Shown here piece after piece: positions 1 to 16,719 of a DNA stretch of 64,000 bases. Position 1 is the first letter of the stretch; the number at the start of each line of letters is the position of its first letter. Under the pieces are notes generated by a model. It did no database searches and was not told where the DNA came from. It saw only the letters and a list, made by a program, of their open reading frames with translations. The translations under genes were made by a program, and so were the position numbers. Origin of the DNA: Terriglobales bacterium (GTDB taxonomy: Bacteria > Acidobacteriota > Terriglobia > Terriglobales > Acidobacteriaceae); assembly GCA_035651655.1 (NCBI GenBank), contig DASRFG010000003.1, positions 1-64,000 of the forward strand, in the 5' to 3' direction.

Positions 1-755
1 ACTTGATCTTCGATCCTCACAGCGTCTCCATTGGTGTCCTGGCCTCCGTGATACCAAACGCTATCCACGTGGCCGAGTTCGTGGACGAGGACCTCTCCAA
101 GAGTGGCCTCGATTGGTTTCCCATTTTCCATGAGGTTCCCCGGCATATGCCCGAGATCACCGCTCGTTACGTAAATATGGGCGATCCCTGGTATTGCCAT
201 CGTTCCGGCTGGACTCATGCCTTTGTCAGCCGAACCGATGCTGATACCCATGATTTTCGTGCCGGGACTGACAAACTGGATGTCAGCACCCGCTTTGGTG
301 TCATTGATAATTCCACTCAGCTTGTTAGACACCGCATTGATGCTTCCGAAGGCATGACCTTTGCCGTCTTGGCCGTTCGTATAGATTCCAAGGTAGTGTT
401 TTCCATCTTTTCCCGCGTTGTCGTACAAGTAGCTACCTGCCTCGCCCGTTGCCTTCTGCAACGCTTCGAGCTGCTTTTTTCGCGCCGCGTCGTCTCCTCT
501 TAGTTCCAGATACTTACCTGTGGGGTCAACGAAGCGGACCGGGTTGTTTCGCGCGTAGGAGTACATGTTCCACTGCTGCGGGTCAATGACTTTCTGCTTC
601 ATGATCCCCGCAGGATCGGGAGACATGAATCTGCCCATTGAACTGCCGAAGTACCTTGCTTTGAAATTGTCCAAGCCGGACTCGGCATCCCGTTCTTTGC
701 CGGCGAACTTGTACTGCAAGCACAGCCATCCGTCACAGCTGAAAAGGGCTTGCAT
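1..755 (-). CDS. Rhs-family protein, C-terminal cassette with zincin motif (partial at window edge)
   Basis: Reading leftwards from an ATG at 755, the frame stays open to the window edge, so the C-terminus is missing. The first part is a typical Rhs-repeat core: KFAGKERDAESGLDNFKARY, then GRFMSPDP, YSYARNNPVRFVDPTG. After the DPTG boundary comes a unique tail of about 170 residues containing the motif VLVHELGHVD (HELGH encoded at 69-83), the HExxH signature of zinc metallopeptidases. Known Rhs proteins end in variable toxin domains, so the tail is inferred to be a metallopeptidase effector. An in-frame stop lies just upstream of the ATG, so this is only a C-terminal cassette without the long YD-repeat shell. 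It starts 6 bases after the end of the small secreted protein gene at 762-1217. The start codon is uncertain, since the cassette may be a displaced fragment that is not expressed alone. Confidence 0.7.
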   Translation of the reverse strand, partial: MQALFSCDGWLCLQYKFAGKERDAESGLDNFKARYFGSSMGRFMSPDPAGIMKQKVIDPQQWNMYSYARNNPVRFVDPTGKYLELRGDDAARKKQLEALQKATGEAGSYLYDNAGKDGKHYLGIYTNGQDGKGHAFGSINAVSNKLSGIINDTKAGADIQFVSPGTKIMGISIGSADKGMSPAGTMAIPGIAHIYVTSGDLGHMPGNLMENGKPIEATLGEVLVHELGHVDSVWYHGGQDTNGDAVRIEDQ

Positions 756-761
756 CGTACG

Positions 762-1217
762 TTAAGGTCGTCCACTCCCTGCGGCCTTGACGTTGATCAA
801 CTCTCGAATTCGGAACTCATATCGGCAGCAGAGTTGATGGCCTATGTCCTTGCCCGGATCGATGAAGTTGCCTACAGCAGTAATCTCCGCCTGCTCGTTC
901 CTCTTAAGGAGTTTCGTCAACTTTTTGTTGAGAGGAGACTTGAACTCAAAATGATCCTGATCAAACGTCGCCAAAACCACGTCGTGCTTGCCAGATGCCG
1001 GGTTCTCCTTTGGCGGACAAGAGTCGTCACGCAGGATTGAGAACTCTGGTCCACTTACGACCCTTGTCTGGACCCGTACTGCCTTTCCTGAATACTCGTT
1101 CGCATGGTCGACCAGAGCACAAAGTGTGATTGTGCTTCCAGAACTCGATGACATTTGCCTGCTCTGAGCGTGAATGCTCGCGATCAACAGCAGAATAAGA
1201 AGCGTGATTTGTTTCAT
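762..1217 (-). CDS. Small secreted protein between Rhs cassettes, possible immunity protein
   Basis: This 151-residue protein begins MKQITLLILLLIASIHAQ, a clear signal peptide with a hydrophobic core and AQ cleavage site. The mature part opens with a segment of the type CALVDHANEYSGKAVRVQTR, like small secreted OB-fold-like proteins common in acidobacteria. I cannot assign a biochemical role. The same frame is open upstream into an Rhs-core remnant ending DPTGHE, so a start at 1343 is possible; the ATG at 1217 is preferred because it follows a purine-rich GGGGAT and begins a signal peptide. Its place directly after an Rhs core and before a second one suggests an immunity-type or passenger gene left by Rhs C-terminal exchange; this is inference. 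Confidence 0.55.
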   Translation of the reverse strand: MKQITLLILLLIASIHAQSRQMSSSSGSTITLCALVDHANEYSGKAVRVQTRVVSGPEFSILRDDSCPPKENPASGKHDVVLATFDQDHFEFKSPLNKKLTKLLKRNEQAEITAVGNFIDPGKDIGHQLCCRYEFRIRELINVKAAGSGRP

Positions 1218-1451
1218 ATCATCCCCATGCCGGAACTCGTGTCCAGTCGGATCGGTGAGGTTAACAGGATTGTTTCTAACGTAACTGTATTTGTTCAGAG
1301 TCTGAGGATCGGCAAACAGCCCGCCCACCGGATCCGGCCTCATGAAACGCCCGGTTGAGGACGACTCATAGCGGGATACGGCATAATTGTAAGTAGTGTC
1401 ATAATTGTGCTCGTATCCGAGAAGCTCAGCAGACTTCTCTCTTTCAAAACC
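1218..1451 (-). pseudogene. Decayed Rhs core fragment
   Basis: The minus strand encodes, in one open frame, a recognisable but degenerate Rhs-repeat core: a GFERE start, SRYESSSTGRFMRPDP, LNKYSYVRNNPVNLTDPTG. In intact Rhs proteins this block lies just before the variable C-terminal tip. Here it begins immediately after the TGA of the YkuD gene (1452-1454) and runs into the small secreted protein gene in the same frame with no toxin domain after DPTG. There is no long YD-repeat shell upstream, so it cannot be a functional Rhs protein. It is best read as the scar of an Rhs gene replaced or truncated by recombination. Confidence 0.65.
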
Positions 1452-1970
1452 TCACGGCCGTATCTCAACCGGCGTGCCAGTTGGAACAAGCGACCAGATT
1501 TCCTCGATCTCTGGGTTGGTCACGGCGATGCATCCCGCTGTCCAGTTCACCTGCCGATGGAGTGACCCGACCCAGGCCCACTTCTCCTCGATGCCGTGGA
1601 TTTCGATCAGACCTCCGGGACTCGTGCCTTGCTTGCGCGCTCGTTCTCGATCTCGCGCGTTCGGATAGGAGATATGCAGCGCACGATGGAAACGGCTGTG
1701 CGCGTTCTTGGAGTCGATCATGTATTCGCCCTCGGGCGTCTCCCGATCTCCCGCCTGGCTCTTCGCTCCGCTGCCTCCACGTCCCAGCGAGACTTTGTAA
1801 GTTTTGAGCACCTGACCGTGGCTCAGCAGCGTCAGCGTGCGCGTGCTCTTCACGATCACCACGCGATCGGCCTTCGCTGCCGTACTCTTGTCCGCTGCCC
1901 AGCTCACCGCGCATAGCGCGAGGATCACTAGGAGCGTGCCACTATTTCCAAGCCGCTTCCGGTGTGCCAT
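1452..1970 (-). CDS. L,D-transpeptidase, YkuD family, exported
   Basis: A 172-residue exported protein. Residues 1-25 form a signal peptide (basic start, hydrophobic GTLLVILALCAVSWA). The rest is a single YkuD domain: VVIVKSTRTLTLLSHGQ, the DRETPEGEY segment, IEIHGI, and the catalytic motif TAGCIAV with the Cys nucleophile and upstream His. The family cross-links peptidoglycan between diaminopimelate residues or attaches proteins to it, in the periplasm. The gene overlaps the end of the preceding exported-protein gene by 29 bases, which suggests co-transcription. There is no LysM or other wall-binding domain, so it is the minimal YkuD form. Confidence 0.88.
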   Translation of the reverse strand: MAHRKRLGNSGTLLVILALCAVSWAADKSTAAKADRVVIVKSTRTLTLLSHGQVLKTYKVSLGRGGSGAKSQAGDRETPEGEYMIDSKNAHSRFHRALHISYPNARDRERARKQGTSPGGLIEIHGIEEKWAWVGSLHRQVNWTAGCIAVTNPEIEEIWSLVPTGTPVEIRP

Positions 1971-3823: not shown

Positions 3824-4537
3824 ATGAAACGGCAGTGTATGTCTTTGACATTGGTACTCTTTCTAGCAGGTACTCTGTTTGCCGGGAGCAACGAAAAAGA
3901 ATCTGATCGGGTGAAGCAGGCGGGTGAGGTGCTCAAAGAAATTGTTAACATTCCGGACAACATACCTAAAGATTTGTTCGATCGCGCCGAGTGCGTGATC
4001 GTATTGCCGTCGGTTAAGAAATTCGCCATTGGGATCGGCGGAAGCTATGGCCGCGGGGTTATGACGTGCCGCACCGGACAGCACTTCACCGGACCGTGGA
4101 GCGCTCCCGCAATGTATGCGCTGGAAGGCGGCAATATCGGGTTTCAACTGGGCGGGCAAGCCACTGACTTTGTCTTACTGGTGATGAACCCCCACGGCGC
4201 GGACTCGTTACTCAAGAGCAAGGTAAAGTTGGGCGCTGATGCTGCAGCCGCGGCCGGCCCCAAGGGTAGAGCCGCAACCGCCGCGACCGACGTGGTCATG
4301 CGAGCGGAAATACTTTCGTATTCACGGTCGCGGGGTTTGTTCGCGGGAATCTCGCTCGAAGGCTCAACCCTGCGTCAGGACAATAGCGCCAACCAGAAAC
4401 TGTACGGCCGGAAGATCACCGCGCGCGAAATCGTACGCCAGCAAAGGGTCGGTATACCGGCATCAGGACGGGAACTGGTAGCGGTGTTGAATCACCATTC
4501 GCCCCGGAACCTGTCAGACAAACAATCGCTGCAGTAG
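3824..4537 (+). CDS. SYLF (Ysc84-type) domain lipid-binding protein, exported
   Basis: 237 residues with a signal peptide (MKRQCMSLTLVLFLAGTLFAG) followed by a SYLF domain: helical DRVKQAGEVLKEIVNIP, then FDRAECVIVLPSVKKFAIG, GGSYGRGVMTCR, FQLGGQATDFVLLVMN, and LLKSKVKLGADAAAAAGPKG. SYLF domains bind phosphoinositides in eukaryotes; bacterial members are periplasmic or outer-membrane associated with unclear roles. A strong Shine-Dalgarno GGAGG sits six bases before the ATG. The gene stands alone, divergent from the VWA gene. Confidence 0.88.
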   Translation: MKRQCMSLTLVLFLAGTLFAGSNEKESDRVKQAGEVLKEIVNIPDNIPKDLFDRAECVIVLPSVKKFAIGIGGSYGRGVMTCRTGQHFTGPWSAPAMYALEGGNIGFQLGGQATDFVLLVMNPHGADSLLKSKVKLGADAAAAAGPKGRAATAATDVVMRAEILSYSRSRGLFAGISLEGSTLRQDNSANQKLYGRKITAREIVRQQRVGIPASGRELVAVLNHHSPRNLSDKQSLQ

Positions 4538-4700
4538 CTTGGAATGCCGTCGCCGGCGGGGTGATAAGCGAGGTACAGGCGGCATGGAATTAACTTCGAA
4601 GCGCTGTACATGAAGTAAGCTGGGCCGGGGTTCTAGTGCTCGGGTTGCGCGCTATGTGGCGGCGCAGCTCGACTGTTGTCGAGATAAGCGGGCTCCATCT

Positions 4701-5417
4701 ATGCAGTGTCTTATTGTCACGCAGGACCCAACCTTACTCGCGGTTGTGCGGGGAGTGTTTGCCGACCTGAGCATTGACCTGGAGTTGCGGCGGGAAGCGG
4801 CTAGCGCCGTGGATCTATGTAAGACGCGTCACCTGGATGGCCTGGTCATTGATTGCGATGACATCCCCGGCGGTGGCGAAGCGCTCAGTAAAATCAGGAA
4901 TAGCCCTTCCAACAAGTCCGCAACTATTTTTGCGGTGGTGAACGGCACTACCAGCGTAGAGAGTGCCGGTACGCTGGGAGCGAACTATGTTCTGCGCAAG
5001 CCGGTTGAAAAGGAACGGCTGCGCTCCTTTCTCGATCTTGCGCTCGCCAGAATGGAGCGCGAGCACCGCCGCTATTTCCGGTATCCGGTTGACCTCCCGG
5101 TAGAACTCCAGACCGCTACGGGAGAGACTATTTCCGTGGACCTGGTCAACATCAGTGAAGGCGGAATGGCGGTGCGGCTCAACCGTAAGATCGAACTGCA
5201 GGGAGTTCTTACTATCCAGTTAAAGCTGCCAAGTACGGAAGAGAGAACTTTCAACGCCAAGGCGGTGGTCGCCTGGACCAACCCGTCATTGGCAGGTCTG
5301 AGATTTCTCTACGTGGCTGCTGAAAGCGAACTCATCTTTCGCAGTTGGATGGACACCTTGGAAGGGCAGTTCCAATTCCGCCAGTCACTCAAGAGCGGAG
5401 CACAGGGCGCCCGGTAA
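4701..5417 (+). CDS. Receiver-like plus PilZ domain protein (c-di-GMP effector)
   Basis: About 238 residues from the ATG at 4701 (MQCLIVTQDPTLL begins the receiver-like strand; the longer start at 4656 adds unrelated residues). Residues 1-115 resemble a CheY-like receiver: GLVIDCDDIPGG around the usual phospho-Asp strand and the conserved Lys in YVLRKPVEKERL. Residues 118-225 are a PilZ domain with both c-di-GMP motifs visible: RRYFR (RxxxR) and NISEGG (N/DxSxxG). It probably links a phospho-signal or protein contact to c-di-GMP binding; the target is unknown. The receiver lacks the usual N-terminal acidic pair, so phosphorylation is doubtful. Confidence 0.85.
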   Translation: MQCLIVTQDPTLLAVVRGVFADLSIDLELRREAASAVDLCKTRHLDGLVIDCDDIPGGGEALSKIRNSPSNKSATIFAVVNGTTSVESAGTLGANYVLRKPVEKERLRSFLDLALARMEREHRRYFRYPVDLPVELQTATGETISVDLVNISEGGMAVRLNRKIELQGVLTIQLKLPSTEERTFNAKAVVAWTNPSLAGLRFLYVAAESELIFRSWMDTLEGQFQFRQSLKSGAQGAR

Positions 5418-5432
5418 CCTATTTCACCGAAT

Positions 5433-6548
5433 TCAACGCCGCTGATCAAAGCTGATTTTAAGAATTCGTCCCTGCGTGCCCACGAGCCAGCCCGCGCGAC
5501 GGCTGGCGAATGCCACGGCCCAATAGTTCGTAACTCCCGGCAGTAAAAACCAGGTCTTACCTTCATTGGGCGACCAGGCAGCGCCGCTCGGGCCGGTAGC
5601 TACTACGGCATGGCTTGCGCCGCCACCATCCGCGCGCCCGTGCCCATCATCTCCACGGCCGATTTCCCGTACATAGCTCAGCCCGTATACGGAGCCAGGA
5701 AAAGGAGTGCGCGTGGCCAGCTTCCAGGTCTTTCCGCCGTCGTTCGAGCGCGCAATATTGTTGGAGAACTCGGTGGGCGTAACCAGCTCTCCGCCGCCCA
5801 AAATGCCATGGATTGCATCGCGGAAATCCACGCTGATTACGCCTGAGGTCGGTGTGCCCTGCACGATGGGCGTGTTGTACGCGGTCCATGAGTCGCCGCC
5901 ATCGCGGGTGGCGATGATGCGTGCCTTCTGGGCGCCGCCAGTACCGATCCAGGCCCGGTTCCTGCCCTGGGTCGCGATGCAAGTGCCACTCGCGGCAAAT
6001 GCGGCTTCGCCGGGCTGGGCAGCCGGGAGATTGTTGCCGATGTCTTGCCACGTCTCGCCGTCACGCGTCCGGATCACGGGGAAACGGCCAGCTACCGAAT
6101 CCGCCATGGTGACTCCGCGCTTCGGAGTCCAAAAGGCAAAGCAGTCATAGAACCCGTTCGGGTCGGTGTTTTGGAATTGCAATGACCAGAATTTCCCGCC
6201 GTCTTCGGTCTTGTAAATGCGCGAGTCGGTGCCCACTCCCGCCGAGAGCAGATAAGCGACCTTGTCGCTGACTCCCTGCACGTCGCGAAACTGCAGGCTC
6301 TCAGCGCCTGGAACCACGGCGGCGTGCCACGTCTTTCCACCGTCAGTAGTCAGAGCGTAGGTTCCGCCGACCCCGCTTGCCCATACCACTCGTTCGCTAA
6401 CCGGGCTGATGGCCTGTAGCCGATTGGTGGTACCGCTCTGCTGCGGCGTGAGCTTGGGATGGCGATCAGCGGAAAAGCTAAGGACAGAGACGCAAATCAG
6501 AAGCGTGGCGAGAGCGGCGGAACGAAAACGGGACATAGGATACCTCAT
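5433..6548 (-). CDS. Exported BNR/Asp-box (YCF48-like) beta-propeller
   Basis: About 371 residues from an ATG at 6548; the frame extends further upstream but only this start gives a signal peptide (SAALATLLICVSVLSFSA). The body carries six Asp-box-like motifs: TTDGGKTWHA, TEDGGKFWSL, RTRDGETWQD, ATRDGGDSWTA, RSNDGGKTWKL, SPNEGKTWFL. Such repeats build a six- to seven-bladed propeller related to sialidases and the HCF136/YCF48 photosystem assembly factor. Sialidase catalytic residues are not evident, so it is more likely a binding or scaffold protein outside the cytoplasm. It converges with the receiver-PilZ gene, the stops being 16 bases apart. Confidence 0.85.
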   Translation of the reverse strand: MRYPMSRFRSAALATLLICVSVLSFSADRHPKLTPQQSGTTNRLQAISPVSERVVWASGVGGTYALTTDGGKTWHAAVVPGAESLQFRDVQGVSDKVAYLLSAGVGTDSRIYKTEDGGKFWSLQFQNTDPNGFYDCFAFWTPKRGVTMADSVAGRFPVIRTRDGETWQDIGNNLPAAQPGEAAFAASGTCIATQGRNRAWIGTGGAQKARIIATRDGGDSWTAYNTPIVQGTPTSGVISVDFRDAIHGILGGGELVTPTEFSNNIARSNDGGKTWKLATRTPFPGSVYGLSYVREIGRGDDGHGRADGGGASHAVVATGPSGAAWSPNEGKTWFLLPGVTNYWAVAFASRRAGWLVGTQGRILKISFDQRR

Positions 6549-6804
6549 CGGCTGGGTGTAAATGCGACCGGGGCGGCAGTATAGGACGGGCGCGAAAGGC
6601 CTGTCAAACGTGGCATGCACAGGATTGGACAGCGGGTGAGCAGCGATATTGATTCCAACGGTTCCTCCACATCCACTCTCACTCTTCCGCTCAGCTACAA
6701 TAATCAGTTGACCACGCTGCATCATTTTCACTAGATGAGAACTCTTTTTTGAGACCGAGTGCAGGGAATTTCCTGTCTCCAGATAATGAAAGGAAGACGC
6801 ACGG

Positions 6805-7737
6805 GTGATTGGGGCCATTGATGTCGGAGGGACAAAAATTGCAGTTGCCATGGTGGCGGAAAACGGGAGGATCGTGCACAAGATGGAATCTCCTACGGCT
6901 GCCGAGCGCGGGTTCGCCGATGGGTTGGCACGTATGCGGCAGATGTTGCAAGAGTGCTCCCGCGCCGCGGATGCTCCCATCACCGGAATAGGAATTGGAA
7001 GCAGCGGCCCGGTTGATCCGTGGACCGGCATCTACGGCCGGGTGGACACCCTGCCCACCTGGGAAGGGTCTGACATCATGAAGCCACTGGAGAGCCAATT
7101 CGGTGTGCGCGTGGCAGTGGAAAATGATGCTGATGCTGCGGCGCTGGCGGAGTCTGCATGGGGCGCCGGTAAGGGAAAGACCCGCTTTATTTATGTGACC
7201 ATCAGCACGGGGATCGGCGGCGGAATAGTATTTGATGGTCAGCTCTATCGCGGAGTTGACGGCGCCCATCCCGAAGTAGGTCATTTTGTGGTTGAGGCGT
7301 CAGGGCCAGAATGCTACTGCGGCGCCCACGGCTGCTGGGAGTGGATGGCAGCAGGTCCCGCAATGGTGTCGTGGATGAAAGCGAATGCACCTAAAGGCGC
7401 CCGGCTGCCGGAAGGCCTGAGCGCGAAGATGATCTGCGAAATGGCGGAGCAGAACGATCCTCTGGCCAAGAAGGCGGTTGAGCGAGAAGGCTATTACATC
7501 GGAGTTGGGCTTGCTAACCTGGTGATGTCATTTTGCCCCGATCGTATTGCCCTTGGCGGGGGCCTTATGGGCAGCTCCCATCTTTTTATGGACCGCATCC
7601 ACGAGGTGGTGCGGACCAATTGCACGTTGGTTCCTGCTTATAAGACTGAGATCGTGCTTGCCTCCATGGGCCCAGATACCGGGGTGGTGGGCGCCGCCAG
7701 CGCCTGGTACAACCGCTACGGCGAACGAAAAGAATGA
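6805..7737 (+). CDS. ROK-family sugar kinase (glucokinase-like)
   Basis: 310 residues starting with GTG at 6805 behind an AGGAAG ribosome site. Visible motifs: N-terminal phosphate loop GAIDVGGTKIAV, the second phosphate motif around STGIGGGIVFDG, catalytic Asp in VENDADAAALAE (about residue 109), and the ROK zinc motif ending CYCGAHGCWEW near residue 170. Known members phosphorylate glucose, N-acetylglucosamine, N-acetylmannosamine or fructose with ATP. The gene overlaps the SIS-domain gene by four bases (ATGA), so the two form an operon, suggesting amino-sugar or hexose phosphate use. No N-terminal helix-turn-helix is present, so it is a kinase and not a ROK repressor. Confidence 0.9.
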   Translation: MIGAIDVGGTKIAVAMVAENGRIVHKMESPTAAERGFADGLARMRQMLQECSRAADAPITGIGIGSSGPVDPWTGIYGRVDTLPTWEGSDIMKPLESQFGVRVAVENDADAAALAESAWGAGKGKTRFIYVTISTGIGGGIVFDGQLYRGVDGAHPEVGHFVVEASGPECYCGAHGCWEWMAAGPAMVSWMKANAPKGARLPEGLSAKMICEMAEQNDPLAKKAVEREGYYIGVGLANLVMSFCPDRIALGGGLMGSSHLFMDRIHEVVRTNCTLVPAYKTEIVLASMGPDTGVVGAASAWYNRYGERKE

Positions 7738-8780
7738 GCGATAAAACCGTAATACAAGGGCAATACTTTCGTGACCTGCTGGCCCAGCCGCAGGCCTTGC
7801 GTGACACGCTTGCCGGTCTCCAACTTACTCCCAAATTGCAGGAGCTGGCGGTGGGACTGGATCGCGAGAAGTATCAGCGCATCGTGCTCACCGGAATGGG
7901 CGGTTCCTTCCACGCGTTGCATCCCCTGAACCTGCGGCTAACTGAGCACGGGTTCACCAGCGTGATGGCGGAAACCTCTGAGCTCATTCATTACATGCCG
8001 CAGCTCCTGACCCAGGAGACGCTGTTGATTGCGGTTTCGCAGTCCGGTAGAAGCGCCGAAACTTTGCGCCTGCTCGAAATGCCTGAACGGCGCGGCCCAA
8101 TTATCGGAATCACGAACACCGAAGGTTCGCCCCTCGCAACCCGCGCGACCGCGGCGGTGGTCACGCGCGCGGGCAACGAATTTTCAGTCTCGTGCAAGAC
8201 TTGGGTGGCGGCGGTGGCGGCCATGGCCTGGATCGGTGAGGTGCTGTGTGAGGGCAAGCCGGAGCGCATCACCGCCGAACTTGCAGCAGCGGCTGACGCC
8301 ATGCAGCAGTACCTGAATAACTGGGAAAGACATGTAGGCGCACTTATCCCCGAGCTCGAGGGAATACGCGATCTGTTCACCGTAGGACGGGGCAGCTCGC
8401 TGGCTGCAGCTTTGACCGCCGGCCTCACCATTAAGGAATCAACCCGCGTCCATTCTGAAGGGATGAGCAGCGCTGCCATGCGTCATGGCCCGTTTGAAAT
8501 CCTCAGTCCGGAAGTCTTTGTTTTGGTGTACGAGGGTGATTCCAAAACCACCGATCTGAACCGCGCCCTGATCAGCGACGTTCGAAAAATAGGCGCGCGC
8601 GCCGTCCTTTGTGGCCCGCATTCAGACCAACCGGCCGCCAAGTTGCCCGAGAGCGGAAACGGCGCGCGTCCAGTGTTGGAGATGTTGCCGGCGCAAATGA
8701 TTTCGCTCGCGCTAGCCGCGATCAAGGGAATTGAAGCGGGGAAATTCCAACGCATTGCCAAGGTCACCGCCACGGAGTAG
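7734..8780 (+). CDS. SIS-domain sugar-phosphate isomerase/deaminase-like protein
   Basis: 348 residues with two SIS (sugar isomerase) modules, as in the isomerase half of glucosamine-6-phosphate synthase. Signatures include the first-module GMGGSFHAL and SQSGRSAETL (phosphosugar-binding SxS), and in the second module GRGSSLAAAL followed by KESTRVHSEGMSSAAMRHGP, the conserved Lys-Glu and His of GlmS/AgaS-type proteins. There is no glutaminase domain, so it probably acts on a phosphosugar with ammonia release or simple aldose-ketose isomerisation. Its ATGA overlap with the ROK kinase supports a two-step kinase-isomerase pathway for an amino sugar; the substrate is unknown. Confidence 0.87.
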   Translation: MSDKTVIQGQYFRDLLAQPQALRDTLAGLQLTPKLQELAVGLDREKYQRIVLTGMGGSFHALHPLNLRLTEHGFTSVMAETSELIHYMPQLLTQETLLIAVSQSGRSAETLRLLEMPERRGPIIGITNTEGSPLATRATAAVVTRAGNEFSVSCKTWVAAVAAMAWIGEVLCEGKPERITAELAAAADAMQQYLNNWERHVGALIPELEGIRDLFTVGRGSSLAAALTAGLTIKESTRVHSEGMSSAAMRHGPFEILSPEVFVLVYEGDSKTTDLNRALISDVRKIGARAVLCGPHSDQPAAKLPESGNGARPVLEMLPAQMISLALAAIKGIEAGKFQRIAKVTATE

Positions 8781-8848
8781 GGAAACCCAGCCGGTGGTCA
8801 GCTTCGATGCCTCAGGGGTGCGCTGAATTGAAGGGCGCCGAGTTCACA

Positions 8849-9589
8849 ATGGAGACCGGCCAAGCTCTTGTCTGGCAGGCGATCCGCGAGTGGTGGCGTA
8901 CCAATCTTTCGCGTTTGGGGCTGCTGCGTACGGCCCAACTCTTCTTCCGGGAAATGTGGGAGTTTGTTCGCGATGCGACCCCCGCGCGCCGCAAGCAGCG
9001 CTACGGCGATATTGAGTTTGACTGCGACTACAAGGTTCATACCACTGCCGCCACGGTCAGCTTGCGCACGCATCTGCTGGGAGTGCTGGCTGGCGGTCCT
9101 TACCAGCCCTGCGATCCAGCGCTATTCCAAGAGACGTTAAGCAAACTGCACATCGAGTACCAAGAATTTGACTTTATTGATCTGGGTTCGGGCAAGGGAC
9201 GTGCCCTGCTCATGGCGTCGGAATATCCGTTCCGCCGAGCGCTTGGCGTGGAGCTGATTCCCGAGTTTCACCGGGTAGCGGAAGACAACATCCGCAGATT
9301 CAACAGTCCCAGCCAACGATGTTTTCGAGTGGAGTCGCAATGCGGAGACGCACGCCAATTTCATTTCCCGCCTACGCCGACTGTGCTGTTCCTGTTTAAT
9401 CCCCTGCCGGAACCCGGACTGGAAGCAGTCATCACCAACCTTGAACACTCATTGCGCGAGCATGCGCGGCAATTTTATGTGCTTTATCACAATCCGGTCC
9501 TGGAGCACGTGCTTGCGCGCAGTCCTCTGCTTGAGCAGGTGGAGTCTACTTTGCAATTCGCGGTTTATCGCAGCAGAAAACCCAATTAA
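8849..9589 (+). CDS. Class I SAM-dependent methyltransferase
   Basis: About 246 residues from an ATG at 8849 (METGQALVW); an ATG at 8807 is also possible. The N-terminal 90 residues are helical and basic. The Rossmann part starts with FIDLGSGKGRALLMAS (motif I, SAM binding), then ALGVELIPEFHRVAEDN (motif II), CGDARQF and TVLFLFNPLP (motif IV). The C-terminus is short. Such NPLP-type enzymes often modify proteins or small molecules, and no substrate can be named. It follows the SIS gene by about 70 bases and may share its transcript. Confidence 0.82.
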   Translation: METGQALVWQAIREWWRTNLSRLGLLRTAQLFFREMWEFVRDATPARRKQRYGDIEFDCDYKVHTTAATVSLRTHLLGVLAGGPYQPCDPALFQETLSKLHIEYQEFDFIDLGSGKGRALLMASEYPFRRALGVELIPEFHRVAEDNIRRFNSPSQRCFRVESQCGDARQFHFPPTPTVLFLFNPLPEPGLEAVITNLEHSLREHARQFYVLYHNPVLEHVLARSPLLEQVESTLQFAVYRSRKPN

Positions 9590-9607
9590 GAAAGGGAGTA
9601 CTCGAAT

Positions 9608-10366
9608 CTATGCACCGCCGCCGTTCTTCTGCGGTTGCCGCTCACGAAGCCATTGCAGAAACATCTGCTCGTAGGATTTCTGGCTGTTGCGCAGCACGTG
9701 CCGCACGGTGTGGCCACTCACGAAGTGGCAAACTTCCTCTGCCAGGTTCTTGGCGTGGTCGCCGGCACGTTCCAAGGCCTGCGCCATGAAGAGAACTTGG
9801 ATGCTCTCGCTGTGCGCCTCGCCTTCCGGATTTTCTACGTGCCTGACGAACATCAGATTTCGCAGGCGGTCAATTTCGGCGTCGGCGCGAAAAATTGCGA
9901 TGGCGCGGTCGATATCGCGGCCGGCAAACGCCTTGTAAGCATCGCCCAGCATCTTTTCCAGTACCGAGGCCATGCGAATCAAGTCTTGGATGTCGCGGCT
10001 CTCCATGCGGCGGCCAAGGATGCGGGCCCCGGAAGCGAAGGTAGAAATCAGGTCGCCTATGCGTTCCAGGTCGGTCATGAAGCGAATGCAGGCCAGCAAT
10101 TCGCGGCGCTCGGGCTCAGAGGTATTGGCAAGGGCTGCGCAGACCCGTTCATCGAGTTCGCGATCGAGCGCGTCCAACTCCTTCTCGCATTCGTCCACTG
10201 TGCCGTACACTGCGGGCGAGTTCGAGCCCAGCGCATCGGCAACATTGCCCGCTGATGTTTTCGCCAACTCGCAGGCGCGCAATGTCAGACCCACCAGATA
10301 GGAGTGCTCAGTTCCGCGATCTGATGGAAATTTCCCCGCCGGTACTGCCATGGTTACTGCCTCCAT
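9608..10366 (-). CDS. phoU: PhoU-family phosphate-signalling protein
   Basis: 252 residues with the tandem three-helix PhoU repeats. Metal-binding E/DxxxD-type motifs are visible: MTDLERIGDL in the first repeat and ALERAGDHAKNLAE in the second. PhoU links the Pst phosphate transporter to the PhoR kinase and keeps the Pho regulon off when phosphate is plentiful. No pst, phoB or phoR gene lies next to it, so it is either a stand-alone regulator or belongs to a remote Pho system. A perfect 16-bp palindrome lies 27-42 bases upstream of the start. The extra N-terminal residues (MEAVTMAVPAGKF) mean the start may be the second Met. Confidence 0.9.
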   Translation of the reverse strand: MEAVTMAVPAGKFPSDRGTEHSYLVGLTLRACELAKTSAGNVADALGSNSPAVYGTVDECEKELDALDRELDERVCAALANTSEPERRELLACIRFMTDLERIGDLISTFASGARILGRRMESRDIQDLIRMASVLEKMLGDAYKAFAGRDIDRAIAIFRADAEIDRLRNLMFVRHVENPEGEAHSESIQVLFMAQALERAGDHAKNLAEEVCHFVSGHTVRHVLRNSQKSYEQMFLQWLRERQPQKNGGGA

Positions 10367-10392
10367 GTCGGTGCATGGTAATGTGCAATCAA

Positions 10393-10408
10393 TAACACTC
10401 GAGTGTTA
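10393..10408. promoter_or_regulatory. Perfect 16-bp palindrome upstream of phoU
   Basis: TAACACTCGAGTGTTA is a perfect inverted repeat without a spacer, placed between phoU (leftwards) and the zinc-ribbon gene at 10584 (rightwards). Its position just before phoU fits a dimeric repressor operator. It does not look like a Pho box, which is built from direct repeats. The cognate regulator is unknown. Confidence 0.5.
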
Positions 10409-10583
10409 AGGAACTGTTACACGGCGGTGAATTTCGCGTAAAAAAGCGGAGCAGATCATCCGGGAGTCGATGATCTTTCGCTTTGCTGCGACCGGGAATA
10501 CACTCTTCCGATTGCTTGCGGGAGAGCAAGTCCAGCCACAAGATATAACTTGGTACACAGAGTAAAAGACTAAAGAGGAAATT

Positions 10584-11006
10584 ATGTCGGATCGCAAGTA
10601 CCGGCAGCACGGTTACATGGATCGCAACCAGCCAACGCGCGAAAAGCAGGAAGCCCCGCCGCGTCCTAAAGACAATCTTGGCGGCCCGCGTCAATTGCAG
10701 ATGCCCGGCAAGAGATCGGTTTCCCGATGCGCCCAGTGCGGCACCGTGCTGCCGGTTGGCACGGAACCAACTGGGCCATGCCCCAAGTGCAGCGCGGCGC
10801 TGCATTCCTGCAAGCAGTGCACCTACTTTGATCCTGGCAGCCGTTTCGAATGCCAGGAAGCAATTACAGAAAGGATAACCCGCAAAGACGCTGCCAATAG
10901 TTGTACGTTTTACGCAATGAAAGTAGCGGTGGAGCGGGAAACATCGAGCGGCGCAGTGCCAGTGAATGACGCGCGCAGGGCCTTCGAAAATCTCTTCAAG
11001 AAATGA
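10584..11006 (+). CDS. Small Cys-rich zinc-ribbon protein
   Basis: 140 residues. The first 45 are polar and disordered with many Arg, Gln and Pro. The middle holds paired cysteines: CAQCG, then CPKCSAALHSCKQC, CQEA and a last SCTFYAM, enough for two zinc ribbons. No catalytic motif is visible. I do not recognise a named family, though small soluble double-ribbon proteins of this kind are widespread in acidobacteria. An in-frame GAGGAAATT precedes the ATG. It is divergent from phoU, sharing the intergenic region that holds the palindrome at 10393. Confidence 0.7.
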   Translation: MSDRKYRQHGYMDRNQPTREKQEAPPRPKDNLGGPRQLQMPGKRSVSRCAQCGTVLPVGTEPTGPCPKCSAALHSCKQCTYFDPGSRFECQEAITERITRKDAANSCTFYAMKVAVERETSSGAVPVNDARRAFENLFKK

Positions 11007-11138
11007 CTTACCCAACTCATGACGACTACTACCAAACCTACCGCCTGTTAGCGGCTTATCTGGTTTTCTTAGATCAGTTACCGCTGATAGCCACTAAGAG
11101 CAGGGAATAGTGTGGAGAGTGGGGCAAAGACGCCCAGG

Positions 11139-13961
11139 TTACAAATTAGCCGCGACCGGCTGCCTGGAAGCGCCCATACCACGCCCAAAGTACTCTGCCA
11201 GCGCTTGGCCGGTGTAGGACTTTTTCTGCCGCGCTACCTGCTCGGGTGTGCCCTGGGCCACAATGCGGCCGCCATTCTCGCCGCCTTCGGGGCCGAGGTC
11301 GATGATCCAATCCGCGTTGCGGATCACATCCAGGTTGTGCTCGATGATGATGATCGTGTTGCCCAGGTCTGTAAGGCGGTGCAACACGTCGAGCAGTTTC
11401 TTGACGTCGTCAAAGTGCAGGCCGGTAGTCGGCTCGTCCAGCAGGTAAAGAGTCTTGCCGGTTTGCCGTTTGCTCAGCTCGCGCGCCAGCTTGATGCGCT
11501 GGGCCTCACCGCCCGAGAGAGTCACCGCCGACTGTCCGAGGTGAATGTAGCCCAATCCCACATCTACGAGAGTCTGCAGCTTCTGCCGGATCTGAGGAAT
11601 GTTTTCCAGCACCGGCAGTGCATCCGAGACCGGCGTTTCCAGTAAATCGGCAATCGAAAAATCCTTGTACTTCACCGCCAGCGTCTCCTGGTTGTAGCGC
11701 TTACCCCCGCAGACCTCGCACACCACGTACACGTCGGGCAGGAAATTCATCTCGATGCGCCGCTGTCCTTCGCCCTGGCACGCCTCACATCGGCCGCCGG
11801 CAACATTGAAGGAGAAGCGGCCGGCCTTGTAGCCACGCTCGCGCGATTCCGGCAGCATGGCGTAAATGTCGCGAATCTGCGTGAAGACACCGGTGTAGGT
11901 GGCAGGATTCGAGCGCGGCGTACGCCCAATGGGCGACTGGTCAATCTGGATGACCTTGTCAATTGCGTCCAAGCCGACAATCGCTTTGTGTGCGCCGGGT
12001 TCCTCCCGCGAGCGATACAAGTGCTTGGCCAGTGCACGATAAAGAATGTCGTTCACCAGAGTGGATTTCCCGGAGCCGGAAACTCCCGTCACCACGGTCA
12101 TCACTCCCAGCGGGAAGCTGGCGTCCAGATTTTTCAGATTGTTTTCCCGCGCCCCCAGCACCGTTACGTCGCCGCCATTGGGTTGCCGACGCTGCGGGAG
12201 CATGGCAATTTGTTTGTTCCCGGAGATGTACTGCCCGGTCAGCGACGCCGGAGTGCGCATAATGTCTTCCGGCGTGCCGTGCGCCACCAGCTGGCCGCCA
12301 TGCCGTCCCGCTCCCGGACCGAGATCAACCACATAATCTGCGCGGCGGATGGTCTCCTCGTCGTGCTCCACCACCAGCACCGTATTACCCAGATCGCGTA
12401 AGGATTCCAGCGCGGCCAGCAGTCGCCCATTGTCGCGGTGATGCAGGCCGATCGAAGGTTCATCCAAAACGTAGAGCACCCCTCGCAGACGGGAACCAAT
12501 CTGGGTCGCAAGGCGAATGCGCTGGCCCTCGCCGCCGGAAAGGGTCGCCGCCGAACGGTCAAGCGAGATGTAGCCCAACCCCACGGCATGCAAGAATTGC
12601 AGCCGCTCGTTGATCTCGTGCACGATCCTTCCGGCGATTGCCTGTTCGCGCGGAGTGAGTTTGATCTTGCTGGCGGCCTCCAGAGAACGCGAGACCGGCA
12701 GCGCGGTGAACTCGGCAATAGACATGCCGTTCACCTTCACAGCCAGGCTCTCCGGCCGAAGCCGTTTGCCGTGGCATACGGGACAGGGCGTGGCCGACAT
12801 GTAGTTCAGCAGCCATTCGCGGTAACTATCGGACGTGGACTCCTCGACGGCATCTTTCAAATATGCCAGCACGCCGCGGAAGCCGGTGCGTGCTCCATTG
12901 CCCCGGTTCTTTTCTTCGCCGTAGAGCACCAGGTTCTGGATTTTTTCCGGCAGCTTCTCAAAAGGTGTGCTCAGGTCAAAATTGTGCGCCTTGGCCGTGA
13001 TCTCCAGCATGTGGATCAAGTAGGACGAGGCTGAGCCCGGCCCCAGGCCGCCCTCCAGCAAGGGCTTCGACCAATCCACAATGATCTTGGCCGGGTCGAA
13101 ATCGTACTTGCTGCCGAGTCCGTGGCATTCCGGGCAGGCGCCGTACGCGCTATTGAAGGAGAACGAACGCGGCTCCAGCACCGGCACGCTGATGCCGCAG
13201 TTGGGACACGCCAGGCGCGCGGAGTAAAGCTGCTCCTCGCCTCCCACCACGGCCACTTGCACCAGACCATCGGCGAGTTTCATGGCGGTGTTGACGGAAT
13301 TTTCCAGGCGCTGCTCGATTCCTGGCTTCACCAGCAGACGATCAACCACTACTTCTATGGTGTGGTTCTTGCGCTTGTCGAGCTTGATCTCGTCTTCCAG
13401 GTTTACCAGTTCGCCATCTACGCGAGCGCGACTGAAACCCTGCTGGACGAGCTTTTCCATCTCCTTTTTGAACTCGCCTTTGCGTCCACGCACAATGGGC
13501 GCCAACAACATCACCCGGTCCTGTGGGGTGAGAGCCATGACGCGCTGCACGATCTGCTCCGCCGATTGCCGGCTGATCGCCTGCCCGCACTTCGGGCAAT
13601 GCGGCACACCGATGGACGAATAAAGCAGCCGCAGGTAGTCGTAAATCTCAGTAATCGTCCCCACCGTGGAGCGCGGGCTGCGGCTGGTGGTTTTCTGCTC
13701 GATAGAAATTGAGGGGCTCAGGCCATCAATGGCATCCACGTCGGGCCGTTCCATCTGATCGAGAAACTGGCGGGCGTAGGCGGAAAGCGTTTCCACGTAC
13801 CGGCGCTGTCCCTCGGCATAAATAGTGTCGAAAGCGAGGGAAGATTTGCCCGAGCCGCTCAGTCCCGTGATCACGGTGAAGGCGTTGCGCGGGATCTCAA
13901 CGTTGATGTTTTTCAGATTGTGCTGGCGCGCTCCGCGCACCGTTATTTTGGTAATCGCCAT
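11139..13961 (-). CDS. uvrA: Excinuclease ABC subunit A
   Basis: 940 residues, the normal size for UvrA. Two ABC ATPase modules are seen: the first Walker [15 protein letters not shown], the UvrB-binding and insertion region with zinc cysteines CPKCG and CPNCG/CPECHG, signature TLSGGEGQR and [15 protein letters not shown]; the second Walker [15 protein letters not shown], zinc finger [21 protein letters not shown], signature TLSGGEAQR and [12 protein letters not shown]. UvrA dimers find bulky DNA damage and load UvrB in nucleotide excision repair. It stands as a single gene with no uvrB or uvrC nearby. No LexA-type box was recognised upstream. Confidence 0.98.
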
Positions 13962-14116
13962 TGTCCCCGGGCGTTATTGTCCTTTGGTAACGTGGACGGG
14001 TCCTCTGAGTAGGTGGAAAGTGAGGTTAGACAACTCTACTTATGTATCTTAGTTGCTAACCAGCAACAGCGTCAACGCGCGGTAGAGTGGCAACTGCTGC
14101 TGTCCATCTGCTTTAA

Positions 14117-14356
14117 ATGCTTGATGGTGGCTCAATGCCAGAGCACTGTTGCCAAATGTTGCAAGATGCGGTGGAGGGCGATGCGATTGTCAACGCTCCC
14201 CTCAGCCAGATGCGAGGTCGCCTCCTGAACGAGGTGGATTCAGACTACGCGGTGCGTTCACCGGAGGAGCGTCCCAATCTGTACCGCTTGAATTTTTGCC
14301 CATTCTGCGGCCGGGCGGTCTCCCGCACAGTGTGGAACGCGGAAAAGAAGAAGTAG
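14117..14356 (+). CDS. Small zinc-ribbon-like hypothetical protein (CPFCG motif)
   Basis: About 79 residues. The C-terminal half has FCPFCGRAVSRTVW, a zinc-ribbon end, and the N-terminal half has CCQMLQDAVEGDAIV, giving a possible CC...CPFC four-cysteine site. Similar small proteins ending in a CPFCG motif are common as standalone hypothetical genes. The start is uncertain: an ATG at 14135 (MPEHCCQML) would also keep all cysteines. Nothing in the neighbourhood gives a role. Confidence 0.55.
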   Translation: MLDGGSMPEHCCQMLQDAVEGDAIVNAPLSQMRGRLLNEVDSDYAVRSPEERPNLYRLNFCPFCGRAVSRTVWNAEKKK

Positions 14357-14435
14357 AGCACGGGAATTTGACCTTGGGACGAGAACATCTGCCAAAGGTG
14401 GCAAGGCATCAGACAACGGAAGGCGGGCCGAACCC

Positions 14436-14609
14436 TTGAGTTTTTTTATAACTTTCGCGATCTTGGTCTTAACAGTTTCTGCCGCACTGGCTTTTGGAAT
14501 TTGGACCAGTTACGTTTTAATAACCGGCATCCTTAATCTCTTCGGCCAACATTCACAGCAGACGACGCCCTCCAGCGTCTTGGTCCAACAGCACGCTGCC
14601 GGCGACTAG
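14436..14609 (+). CDS. Small single-span membrane protein, TTG start
   Basis: An open frame of 57 residues starting with TTG at 14436. Residues 3-38 are strongly hydrophobic (FFITFAILVLTVSAALAFGI, then tryptophan and VLITGIL), enough for one long or two short membrane spans, and the tail is polar (QHSQQTTPSS). A weak purine-rich GGAAGGCGGG lies upstream. It ends 12 bases before the convergent exported-protein gene. Function unknown; support is the hydrophobic pattern and the clean stop. Confidence 0.42.
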   Translation: MSFFITFAILVLTVSAALAFGIWTSYVLITGILNLFGQHSQQTTPSSVLVQQHAAGD

Positions 14610-14621
14610 TTTGCTCTATTA

Positions 14622-15503
14622 TTATTGCGGCTCTTGAGGCTGTTGCGGTTGTTGCTGCTGTTGCTGCTGCATCCGTTGTAATTCCTGCAACAATTGCTCC
14701 GGAGTCTTTACACCAGCTTGTCCCGGTGGGGCCTGCTGATCGGGTTGTTGGCCAGGATAAGCCTGCGGCATATTGGGTTGCTGTCCGGGCTGGACGGTGC
14801 CTTGCTGGGGAAACTGCTGTTGATTCTCCTGCTGCATGACCGCGGGCGGCGCGTCAGGGTTCTCTTCCGCTTGAGGTTCTTCCGCGGTTGGCGTGTCCGG
14901 CTGCTCCTCCACCTCCTGTGGTACTTCGGGGACCTCACTTCCCATTTGAGGTTGCTGCTGCACCTGATTATTGGCCACCGTGGTATTTCCCCCGGTATTT
15001 CCTGCGGCGCTGGGGCCAGAGCGTGGGGACAAGATCACGCGTTGCACGCCACTAGGATCCGAAGGCGATGCGATCATCACGTAGTCAAAACGTGAGCCAT
15101 TCAGCAGGTGCGCGAGCACATCACGCGCCGGACCAGGACCCATGCTCCCCGCCACCCGCTCACTGCCGGCGCCCGGAGGGATCTCAATCACCGCCCCTGT
15201 GCGATTACGCACCGCTGAGAGAATGTCTCCCAAGGTCGAGTTCTGAGAGATAATCGTCAGCTGCCCATTCAGGTAGCTGACTTGCGGAGGTTGTGCGGGC
15301 ATCTGCTCAGGGGTTGGCGGCGGGGGTGGCGTCGGCTCCGGCTGAGGTTCAGGCTGCTTCGGTGCGACCACAGCTTTTGCCTTAACTTTGCGGATCCGCA
15401 CGACCTTGCGGCCGATTGGGTTCTGGGCAGCCGCCCCGGACGGCATAAGAGCCGCCGTGAGGCCAAGGGCAAGAACAGCAATTTGACTAAGTGACAAGAT
15501 CAA
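14622..15503 (-). CDS. Exported STN-like domain protein with Gln/Pro-rich tail
   Basis: 293 residues: signal peptide to about residue 26 (ALMPSGAAAQ), a Pro/Glu linker (QPEPTPPPPPTPEQ), a domain at about residues 75-155 that matches the secretin/TonB short N-terminal pattern (LTIISQNSTLGDILSAVRNR, then DVLAHLLNGSRFDYVMI), and a long low-complexity tail very rich in Gln, Pro and Glu ending in runs of Gln. STN domains bind partners in outer-membrane transport and secretion systems. No barrel follows, so this may be an accessory periplasmic protein. The Gln codon runs make the tail prone to length change. Confidence 0.72.
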   Translation of the reverse strand: MILSLSQIAVLALGLTAALMPSGAAAQNPIGRKVVRIRKVKAKAVVAPKQPEPQPEPTPPPPPTPEQMPAQPPQVSYLNGQLTIISQNSTLGDILSAVRNRTGAVIEIPPGAGSERVAGSMGPGPARDVLAHLLNGSRFDYVMIASPSDPSGVQRVILSPRSGPSAAGNTGGNTTVANNQVQQQPQMGSEVPEVPQEVEEQPDTPTAEEPQAEENPDAPPAVMQQENQQQFPQQGTVQPGQQPNMPQAYPGQQPDQQAPPGQAGVKTPEQLLQELQRMQQQQQQQPQQPQEPQ

Positions 15504-15702
15504 CGTCCAATCAGTTAGATATTAGCACTGGTATATAGAACGCTCACGGGTCGGCTTTTTGCGCTGTTCGTCGGGAATTTCCAAATCGGGCCAAGGTCGG
15601 AAGTTACCTTTGAGACGCCGTTGCAACCGGCTGACTTGCATCTGGGTAGCTGAATTTGGCATCGTAAGGATAGAATCGCCACCGCAAAAGAAGGAACCGG
15701 AA

Positions 15703-16719
15703 ATGAGTGTGATCCACCGAAGTGTAAAGAAAGACTGGAGTTGCAGGCGGTCGGCGGAGATAGTACTGGGCGTCGTACTTTTGGCGATCCCCGGCTTCGC
15801 TGCCATGACCTGCCAACTGGCCAGCGAGATGGATCCCGCCACTCGCTCCCTCCTGGAGAGCACGGCCAAGCGCTACTTCGATATGGCTGCCCACGGCGAT
15901 TCCGTCTCCTTGCGTCAGAATGCGACATCGGCGTTGGCTTCGGATTTCGGTGGGGTAGAGGCGGCGGTGAACGAGAATAAACAGAACTTTTCCAGCGCTC
16001 AGACGACGGTGCGTCCACCATTCCTGCTGGCGCAGACCGGACCCGTGGTCGAGGCACGGGCAGACTTTTATTGTGGCATCTACAACTCGCCCGACCGCGT
16101 AGGTTTTTCCATTCCTAACTTGGCGCCCGGCAAATACGCGCTGGTTATTCAGGACGTAAAGGCGACCAATGGCACATACAGCGTCTCCATGATCCTCGAG
16201 CAAGCAGGAGCGAACTGGAAGCTGGCGGGTTATTTCGTGCAGCCGGAGACCATCGCCGGGCACGATTCGCAATGGTATTGGAACAAGGCCAAAGAATTTA
16301 AGTCCAAAGGGCAGAACATCAACGCTTATATGTACTACGTCCAGGCCAGGCAACTGATGCAGCCCGTGACCTTTATGGGCACGCCCCAGCTGGACAAGAT
16401 TTACGATGAAACTCAGCAAGTGGCGCCCAAGGATTTGCCTACCAGCGGCCCGGTTGATCAAATGCTGGGCACGAAGAGTTTTAAATTGAACCAGGTGTTT
16501 CCCGTGCCGGTCAACAATGAACTCGACTTGGTGGTGAAATATCTGGTGCCGGACATCTCGGATACCAGCCAGGTTTTTCAGGACAACATGGCCGTAATCA
16601 AAGGCATGGTTAGCAAGTATCCAGAACTGCGAGAGGCTTTCAGTGCGGTAGTTGCCCGCGCGGTTGCGCCCAATGGCCAGGATTACGGCTCTCTGCTGCC
16701 GATGAAAGATATCAAGTAG
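15703..16719 (+). CDS. Exported hypothetical protein
   Basis: 338 residues from the ATG at 15703, chosen because GGAACCGGAA precedes it and the protein starts with a basic stretch and a membrane span (IVLGVVLLAIPGFAA). The remainder is soluble: helical segment SLLESTAKRYFDMAAHGDS, a beta-rich middle (GKYALVIQDVKATNGTYSVS), a W-rich block HDSQWYWNKAKEFKSKGQN followed by helices as in a TPR-like hairpin, and a final alpha/beta domain. No enzymatic motif was recognised. It appears to be an acidobacterial envelope protein with a mixed helical/beta fold. Confidence 0.72.
   Translation: MSVIHRSVKKDWSCRRSAEIVLGVVLLAIPGFAAMTCQLASEMDPATRSLLESTAKRYFDMAAHGDSVSLRQNATSALASDFGGVEAAVNENKQNFSSAQTTVRPPFLLAQTGPVVEARADFYCGIYNSPDRVGFSIPNLAPGKYALVIQDVKATNGTYSVSMILEQAGANWKLAGYFVQPETIAGHDSQWYWNKAKEFKSKGQNINAYMYYVQARQLMQPVTFMGTPQLDKIYDETQQVAPKDLPTSGPVDQMLGTKSFKLNQVFPVPVNNELDLVVKYLVPDISDTSQVFQDNMAVIKGMVSKYPELREAFSAVVARAVAPNGQDYGSLLPMKDIK

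What the first reader, a model, noticed from the sequence alone, without database searches (positions are those of the whole stretch)
1..1451. Displaced Rhs C-terminal cassettes with a zincin effector
Two Rhs-core ends (both with YSY.RNNPV and DPTG) occur in the same direction: the first decayed, followed by a small secreted protein in the same frame; the second followed by a domain with HELGH. Neither has the large YD-repeat shell. This is the pattern of Rhs C-terminal exchange, where old tips and their passenger genes remain as orphans. A zincin-type tip and a secreted partner between the cassettes could be a toxin/immunity pair of an unfamiliar type.
Basis: partly seen in the sequence, partly recalled or inferred. 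Interest (0 to 1): 0.68.

Follow-up and report, generated by a model that had tools for sequence, protein, structure and literature searches.

The report
Orphan Rhs toxin tips, one protease-like
The start of this acidobacterial contig carries two cut-off tips of a bacterial weapon protein (Rhs): one seems to have lost its toxin and kept only a likely protective protein, the other still carries a protease-like toxin whose own protector probably lies beyond the end of the contig.

Summary
On the minus strand (1451-3) two shell-less Rhs core ends follow each other, both ending NPV....DPTG. Base 1 is a contig end. After core 1, eight codons separate DPTG from the ATG of a signal-peptide-like protein. 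After core 2 comes a tail with HELGH and a later Glu, cut off by the contig end.

The HELGH is no chance match. Nine relatives in eight other Acidobacteriota genomes also follow an Rhs core. All ten keep HE..GH; nine keep the Glu, one has Asp. A profile comparison with Peptidase_M91 (HopH1-like) domains beats 120 shuffles, but no member reaches Pfam's M91 cut-off and no confident fold was obtained.

The proposed pairing of zincin and in-between protein is not supported. Relatives of that protein lie directly 3' of another tail type (HEGxH) in three genomes; HELGH tails are followed by other, mostly envelope-type genes, three of one lipoprotein family. Best reading: two modules of an orphan Rhs-CT/immunity array, the first without its toxin, the second with its immunity gene off the contig. 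Orphan Rhs arrays are known; these tail and immunity families have no Pfam match above cut-off.

The parts
1452..1970 (-). L,D-transpeptidase (YkuD) gene; flank, its stop codon abuts the core remnant
   Evidence: Pfam PF03734 E 4.8e-23; junction read
1242..1451 (-). Rhs core remnant 1 (degenerate upstream part), ends NPVNLTDPTG
   Evidence: TIGR03696 1239-1436, E 1.1e-12
1218..1241 (-). 8 codons (HEFRHGDD) between DPTG and the passenger ATG; the expected place of the missing toxin tail
   Evidence: frame read
762..1217 (-). 151-aa passenger with signal-peptide-like N-terminus (by eye); candidate orphan immunity protein
   Evidence: relatives in G049 (E 1.7e-38) and G093, G172, G311, G336, G365
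516..755 (-). Rhs core end 2, YKFAGKERDAESGLDNFKARYF...NPVRFVDPTG; ATG at 755 without a clear ribosome-binding site
   Evidence: TIGR03696 516-716, E 1.3e-19; NCBIfam scan E 1.7e-19; upstream letters
3..515 (-). zincin-like Rhs C-terminal tail, incomplete at the contig end; HELGH 83-69, putative third ligand Glu 11-9
   Evidence: relative in SZAS-18/G405 E 8.0e-14; family alignment of 10; M91 profile comparison with shuffles

Best explanation
The stretch is two successive modules of an orphan Rhs-CT/immunity array. Module 1 kept its core end and its immunity gene but lost the toxin between them (shown: the junction; inferred: the loss, and that the passenger is immunity against an HEGxH-type tail). 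Module 2 has a core end joined to an M91/HopH1-like metallopeptidase tail (shown: family and putative catalytic residues; inferred: fold, zinc and toxicity); its own immunity gene, probably a lipoprotein or membrane protein as in relatives, should lie 3', beyond base 1 (inferred). With no shell and no clear start the tail is probably silent, a store from which a full-length rhs gene could gain the tip by recombination, while the passenger gene has its own ATG with GGGGATGAT directly before it and may be expressed (inferred). If delivered, the tip would act as a protease on a neighbouring bacterium, perhaps in its envelope (inferred).
For: Core ends by TIGR03696. The tail follows an Rhs core in all 10 aligned members, on long Rhs frames in G550 (1709 aa) and G212 (1289 aa). 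HE and GH in 10 of 10, third acidic residue Glu in 9 and Asp in 1. Profile score against seven M91 domains 50.0; best of 40 shuffles each 15.2 (all columns), 27.2 (HExxH kept), 40.5 (HExxH with 3 columns either side kept). Next gene 3' of HELGH tails: one family with a lipobox-like motif in G550, G536 and one G645 copy, proteins with a strongly hydrophobic segment in G562, G677, G586 and the other G645 copy. Passenger relatives directly 3' of HEGxH tails in G336, G586, G093. The own genome has another cluster of three core ends (C2 126-133 kb). Cassette GC 0.50-0.55 against 0.61 and 0.58 in two flanking genes. Orphan rhs-CT/rhsI modules and recombination of an rhs orphan with the main gene are published (PMC3150448, PMC3967940; passages).
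Against: The sequence 3' of the tail is missing, so the predicted immunity gene is unseen. No rhs shell lies upstream on C3, whereas published orphan modules lie downstream of a main rhs. Only 4 of 8 HEGxH sites (3 of 5 genomes; one of the four weak) have a passenger-family neighbour; the three G645 tails and the G686 fragment do not. HEGxH tails are seen in frame with an Rhs core only in G645; in G336 a stop codon stands between core and tail, and in G586 and G093 no core directly precedes them in frame. G336 and G093 were found by searching with the passenger, so only G586 is an independent case. Passenger relatives also occur where no Rhs tail was seen (G049 twice, G172, G311, G365). A second M91 set, five Rhs-borne tails, scored 39.6 without shuffles of its own. 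Structure predictions failed (mean pLDDT 35.9 and 34.5). Envelope-type next genes are also common after other Rhs tails (9 of 14; Fisher p 0.12 against 7 of 7, 0.35 against 7 of 8 with G358).
Confidence: 0.72

Rival explanations
1. One reading: the zincin tail and the secreted protein between the cassettes are a cognate toxin/immunity pair.
For: They are neighbours, in one frame, and the passenger looks exported.
Against: The order is immunity-toxin, opposite to the relatives read. Next genes after HELGH tails are not found by the passenger profile. Passenger relatives follow HEGxH tails.
Confidence: 0.1
2. Decayed remnants only: broken Rhs ends with no function, kept by chance.
For: Core 1 is degenerate, there is no shell, the tail's ATG has no clear ribosome-binding site, and core 1 has no, core 2 only one 72% DNA match elsewhere in the genome, which makes recombination unlikely.
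Against: Tail and passenger frames are intact as far as read, and the putative catalytic residues are conserved. The passenger keeps 41% identity to a gene in another genus.
Confidence: 0.2
3. The passenger is not immunity but an ordinary secreted protein of Acidobacteriota that happened to land beside an Rhs fragment.
For: At five places its relatives showed no Rhs tail nearby (G049 C21 and C25, G172, G311, G365; no HEG profile match there).
Against: It starts 8 codons after DPTG, and relatives adjoin HEGxH tails in three genomes, one of which (G586) was found through the other tail family, not through the passenger.
Confidence: 0.32

Closest known systems
Orphan rhs-CT/rhsI modules (PMC3150448, PMC3967940; passages seen)
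   Same: Shell-less core ends with DPxG, variable tails, linked immunity genes, no clear start for the tail.
   Different: No main rhs gene upstream on this contig; module 1 has lost its toxin; cores are unlike the genome's full-length cores; acidobacterial.
Tox-HopH1 / Peptidase_M91 (PF14891) toxin domains (PMC3482391; passages seen)
   Same: HExxH and a later acidic residue where HopH1 has [DE]N; carried by Rhs proteins; profile similarity above shuffles.
   Different: No member scanned reaches the Pfam cut-off. The table row seen lists no immunity proteins and no acidobacteria for Tox-HopH1.
Orphan immunity gene arrays of Vibrio cholerae T6SS (PMC5361080; abstract and opening seen)
   Same: Effector displaced, cognate immunity gene kept.
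   Different: Rhs core rather than T6SS cluster; there supported by comparison of strains, here only inferred.

Membership tests
Orphan Rhs-CT/immunity module | Rhs core end with DPxG joined to a variable tail | tested here: met
   TIGR03696 at 516-716 and 1239-1436; DPTG in both. Met in full for module 2; in module 1 the tail is missing
Orphan Rhs-CT/immunity module | No YD-repeat shell | tested here: met
   None of the genome's 21 RHS_repeat matches is on C3
Orphan Rhs-CT/immunity module | Tail followed by its immunity gene | not testable with these tools
   Contig ends inside the tail; no second contig matched bases 1-1500 beyond a core
Orphan Rhs-CT/immunity module | Located downstream of a main rhs gene | tested here: not met
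   Upstream on C3 are YkuD and other genes; no further TIGR03696 site on C3. What lies beyond base 1 is unknown
Peptidase_M91 / Tox-HopH1 | Pfam gathering score | tested here: not met
   Window 0 families. SZAS-18 12.3 bits; G212 no M91; seven others no M91 at E<=0.1; cut-off 25
Peptidase_M91 / Tox-HopH1 | HExxH followed by [DE]N | tested here: inconclusive
   HExxH in 9 of 10 (G677 has HExxxH). Acidic residue in 10 of 10; the window reads ED instead of EN, G212 DR
Peptidase_M91 / Tox-HopH1 | Profile similarity beyond the motif | tested here: met
   Score 50.0 against 40.5, best of 40 motif-preserving shuffles; Rhs-borne M91 subset 39.6, not shuffled
Peptidase_M91 / Tox-HopH1 | Zincin fold | tested here: inconclusive
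   AlphaFold2 mean pLDDT 35.9 and 34.5
Immunity protein of HEGxH tails (passenger) | Directly 3' of an HEGxH tail in relatives | tested here: inconclusive
   4 of 8 HEGxH sites, one weak

The most novel reading that the evidence does not exclude
Acidobacteriota carry two unrelated-looking families of Rhs protease tips (HELGH/EN and HEGxH), each with its own exported immunity families; they are swapped as cassettes and attack the envelope of neighbours, and the window catches an array where one toxin has been lost and its exported immunity protein kept.
Probability: 0.35. Interest if true: 0.6.

Novelty: new variant of a known kind. Interest (0 to 1): 0.42.

Why it matters
The table passage seen in the polymorphic-toxin survey PMC3482391 lists no immunity partner for Tox-HopH1 or Tox-MPTase1-5. 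The relatives gathered here give concrete toxin/immunity candidates for two protease-like tail families, with exported or membrane-bound protectors that hint at an envelope target, and show core-toxin-immunity cassettes being shuffled and lost in Acidobacteriota.

Tried and rejected
Close relatives of the tail: none in 150 relatives other than the own genome; none with the single sequence in genome contigs, though the three-row profile found one record there, SZAS-18; none in plasmids or viral contigs. PDB by sequence: nothing meaningful. Overlap of the contig end with another contig: none. C39, a 3.7-kb contig with Rhs cores at both ends, was considered as a continuation, but nothing links it to base 1. 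Structure prediction twice, both poor, so no fold search was made. HEGxH tails as relatives of the HELGH family or of M91: hhalign probability 0.7 and 2.2, not supported. L128 frame 12416-13258 as a passenger relative: similar by eye, not found by the profile. Envelope location of immunity as special to HELGH tails: control not significant; that script's core pattern misses some cores (G212, G093 and one G645 tail) and its 'other' class includes two M91-like tails (L041, L108). PADLOC: no match in four proteins.

Rows dropped before the family alignment of ten: the 22 weak rows of 21 genomes (E 0.005 to 0.1; frames with HExxH looked at, none used); G239 (stops inside) and G358 (M91-like, compared separately); both weak G543 matches (no frame with both HExxH and DP.G). 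The seven M91 domains used for the shuffle test are 7 of the 24 places. One search counted G358 in its HELGH class (8 with a next gene, 7 envelope-type); without it 7 of 7.

Full report
Where it is. The window is bases 1-64000 of contig C3 of a 4.07-Mb, 39-contig genome, so base 1 is a contig end. A search with bases 1-1500 found no second place except a 72% match over 177 nt inside an Rhs core on C35. G405, ranked 'same phylum', is the record JAFDVO010000023.1, Acidobacteria bacterium SZAS-18, so the genome is acidobacterial; its own name is not known.

Anatomy (minus strand, gene direction). A YkuD gene (1970-1452; PF03734, E 4.8e-23) ends directly before a degenerate Rhs core end (1451-1242; TIGR03696 at 1239-1436, E 1.1e-12). 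Eight codons after DPTG stands the ATG of a 151-aa protein with a signal-peptide-like start (1217-765); GGGGATGAT stands directly before its ATG. Its stop (762-764) is followed in the same frame by a second core end (TIGR03696 at 516-716, E 1.3e-19) and a tail (515-3) with HELGH and a later Glu, cut by the contig end. Pfam finds nothing at E<=1 in the second core frame or in the passenger frame.

The tail is a real Rhs-tip family. No match in 150 relatives but itself. In 396 genomes of the phylum 23 had a match at E<=0.1, but only the own genome and G405 (E 8.0e-14) at E below 0.005. A two-row profile gave 5 of 396 at E<=0.01, own included, and a three-row profile gave 8 of 299 class genomes, own included. 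Ten tails were aligned: window, SZAS-18 (G405), G212, G550, G562, G536, two of G645, G677 and G586. Each follows an Rhs core; G550 (1709 aa) and G212 (1289 aa) are long frames with YD repeats by eye. HE and GH are invariant (G677 has one residue more between them); the third acidic residue is Glu in nine and Asp in G212. The window keeps all of them.

Relation to M91. A PF14891 search hit 17 of 297 genomes at 24 places. Seven of these domains, aligned, were compared with the ten tails: hhalign probability 91.9, score 50.0. Forty shuffles each gave at best 15.2 (all columns shuffled), 27.2 (HExxH kept) and 40.5 (HExxH with three columns each side kept). Twelve M91 sequences together scored 57.8 and five Rhs-borne ones alone 39.6, both without shuffles. 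Single members stay below Pfam's cut-off. So the tail works like, and is probably a distant relative of, HopH1/M91-type metallopeptidase toxins, but is not filed as a member. Two AlphaFold2 runs failed (mean pLDDT 35.9 and 34.5).

Who protects against it. In G550, G536 and the second G645 copy the gene overlapping the 3' end of the tail belongs to one family (open frames of 165, 174 and 186 aa, lipobox-like motif, pairwise 37-69 bits). In G562, G677, G586 and the first G645 copy it has a strongly hydrophobic segment, in G562 near the N-terminus. In G212 a hydrophobic 116-aa frame follows. G405 ends at the contig edge. The passenger profile finds none of these. As a control, 9 of 14 other Rhs tails in the fetched loci are also followed by an envelope-type frame, so this location is a tendency, not a signature (Fisher p 0.12, or 0.35 with G358 counted).

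What the passenger is. Its nearest relative is 41% identical (G049). Profile matches lie in 6 of 297 genomes of the phylum, own included. Three genomes have it directly 3' of another tail type with HEGxH: G336 (open frames parted only by the stop codon), G586 (overlapping; found through the HELGH search) and G093 (passenger frame broken there). A second, weak case is also in G093 (HEG profile E 0.002; passenger profile E 4.5e-5). Four other HEGxH sites lack it (three in G645, a fragment in G686). That HEGxH is an Rhs tail rests on G645, where three are in frame with a core; in G336 a stop codon stands between core and tail, and in G586 and G093 no core directly precedes it in frame. At five places the passenger family has no Rhs tail in view (G049 twice, G172, G311, G365; no HEG profile match). 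The simplest reading is a secreted domain recruited as immunity for HEGxH tails; in the window its toxin is gone and core 1 now runs into it.

Comparison with print. Orphan rhs-CT/rhsI modules, their lack of translation starts, the expression of an orphan CDI immunity protein and recombination of an rhs orphan with the main gene are described in PMC3150448 and PMC3967940 (passages). Displacement of effectors with retention of immunity genes is described for Vibrio (PMC5361080, abstract and opening). Protease tips of polymorphic toxins are catalogued in PMC3482391 (passages). The searches listed no paper that I recognised, from titles and abstract starts only, as describing the HELGH or HEGxH tail families or the passenger family; this does not show that none exists.

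Verdict. Observation confirmed; interpretation partly right: displaced Rhs cassettes with a protease-like tip, but the toxin/immunity pairing is probably wrong. The kind of locus is known; the families are without a Pfam model above cut-off and give testable pairs.

Noticed in passing
G000 C10 (L040) and C35 (L039): Two long rhs genes of the genome (1626 and 1628 aa frames) are each preceded by the same two gene types: a ~150-aa receiver-like frame and a 267-aa secreted frame (by eye).
   Followed up: no
L038 (G000 C39, 3728 nt): A whole short contig bounded by the same Rhs core at both ends, with a tail and small frames between; the assembly seems to break at repeated cores.
   Followed up: partly
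L041 3758-7452 (G000 C25): A 1045-aa Rhs frame with an HELGGH tail is overlapped at its 3' end by a signal-peptide-like, HEAT-like frame, a likely immunity gene (by eye).
   Followed up: no
L107 (G212) 4508-8998: The HELGH Rhs gene is followed by tyrosine-recombinase-like and transposase-like frames (by eye).
   Followed up: no
L108 (G358 C9): An orphan core with an M91-like tail lies about 12 kb downstream, same strand, of a long Rhs frame with another M91-like tail; a small frame follows the orphan within a few nt.
   Followed up: partly
L132 (G172) 4073-6061: The passenger domain occurs twice in a 324-aa frame and once in a neighbouring 279-aa frame, with no Rhs tail seen nearby.
   Followed up: no
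L128 (G645 C10) 4448-16669: Six Rhs tails in one direction in about 12 kb, mixing HELGH, HEGxH and another tip with different small exported genes.
   Followed up: partly
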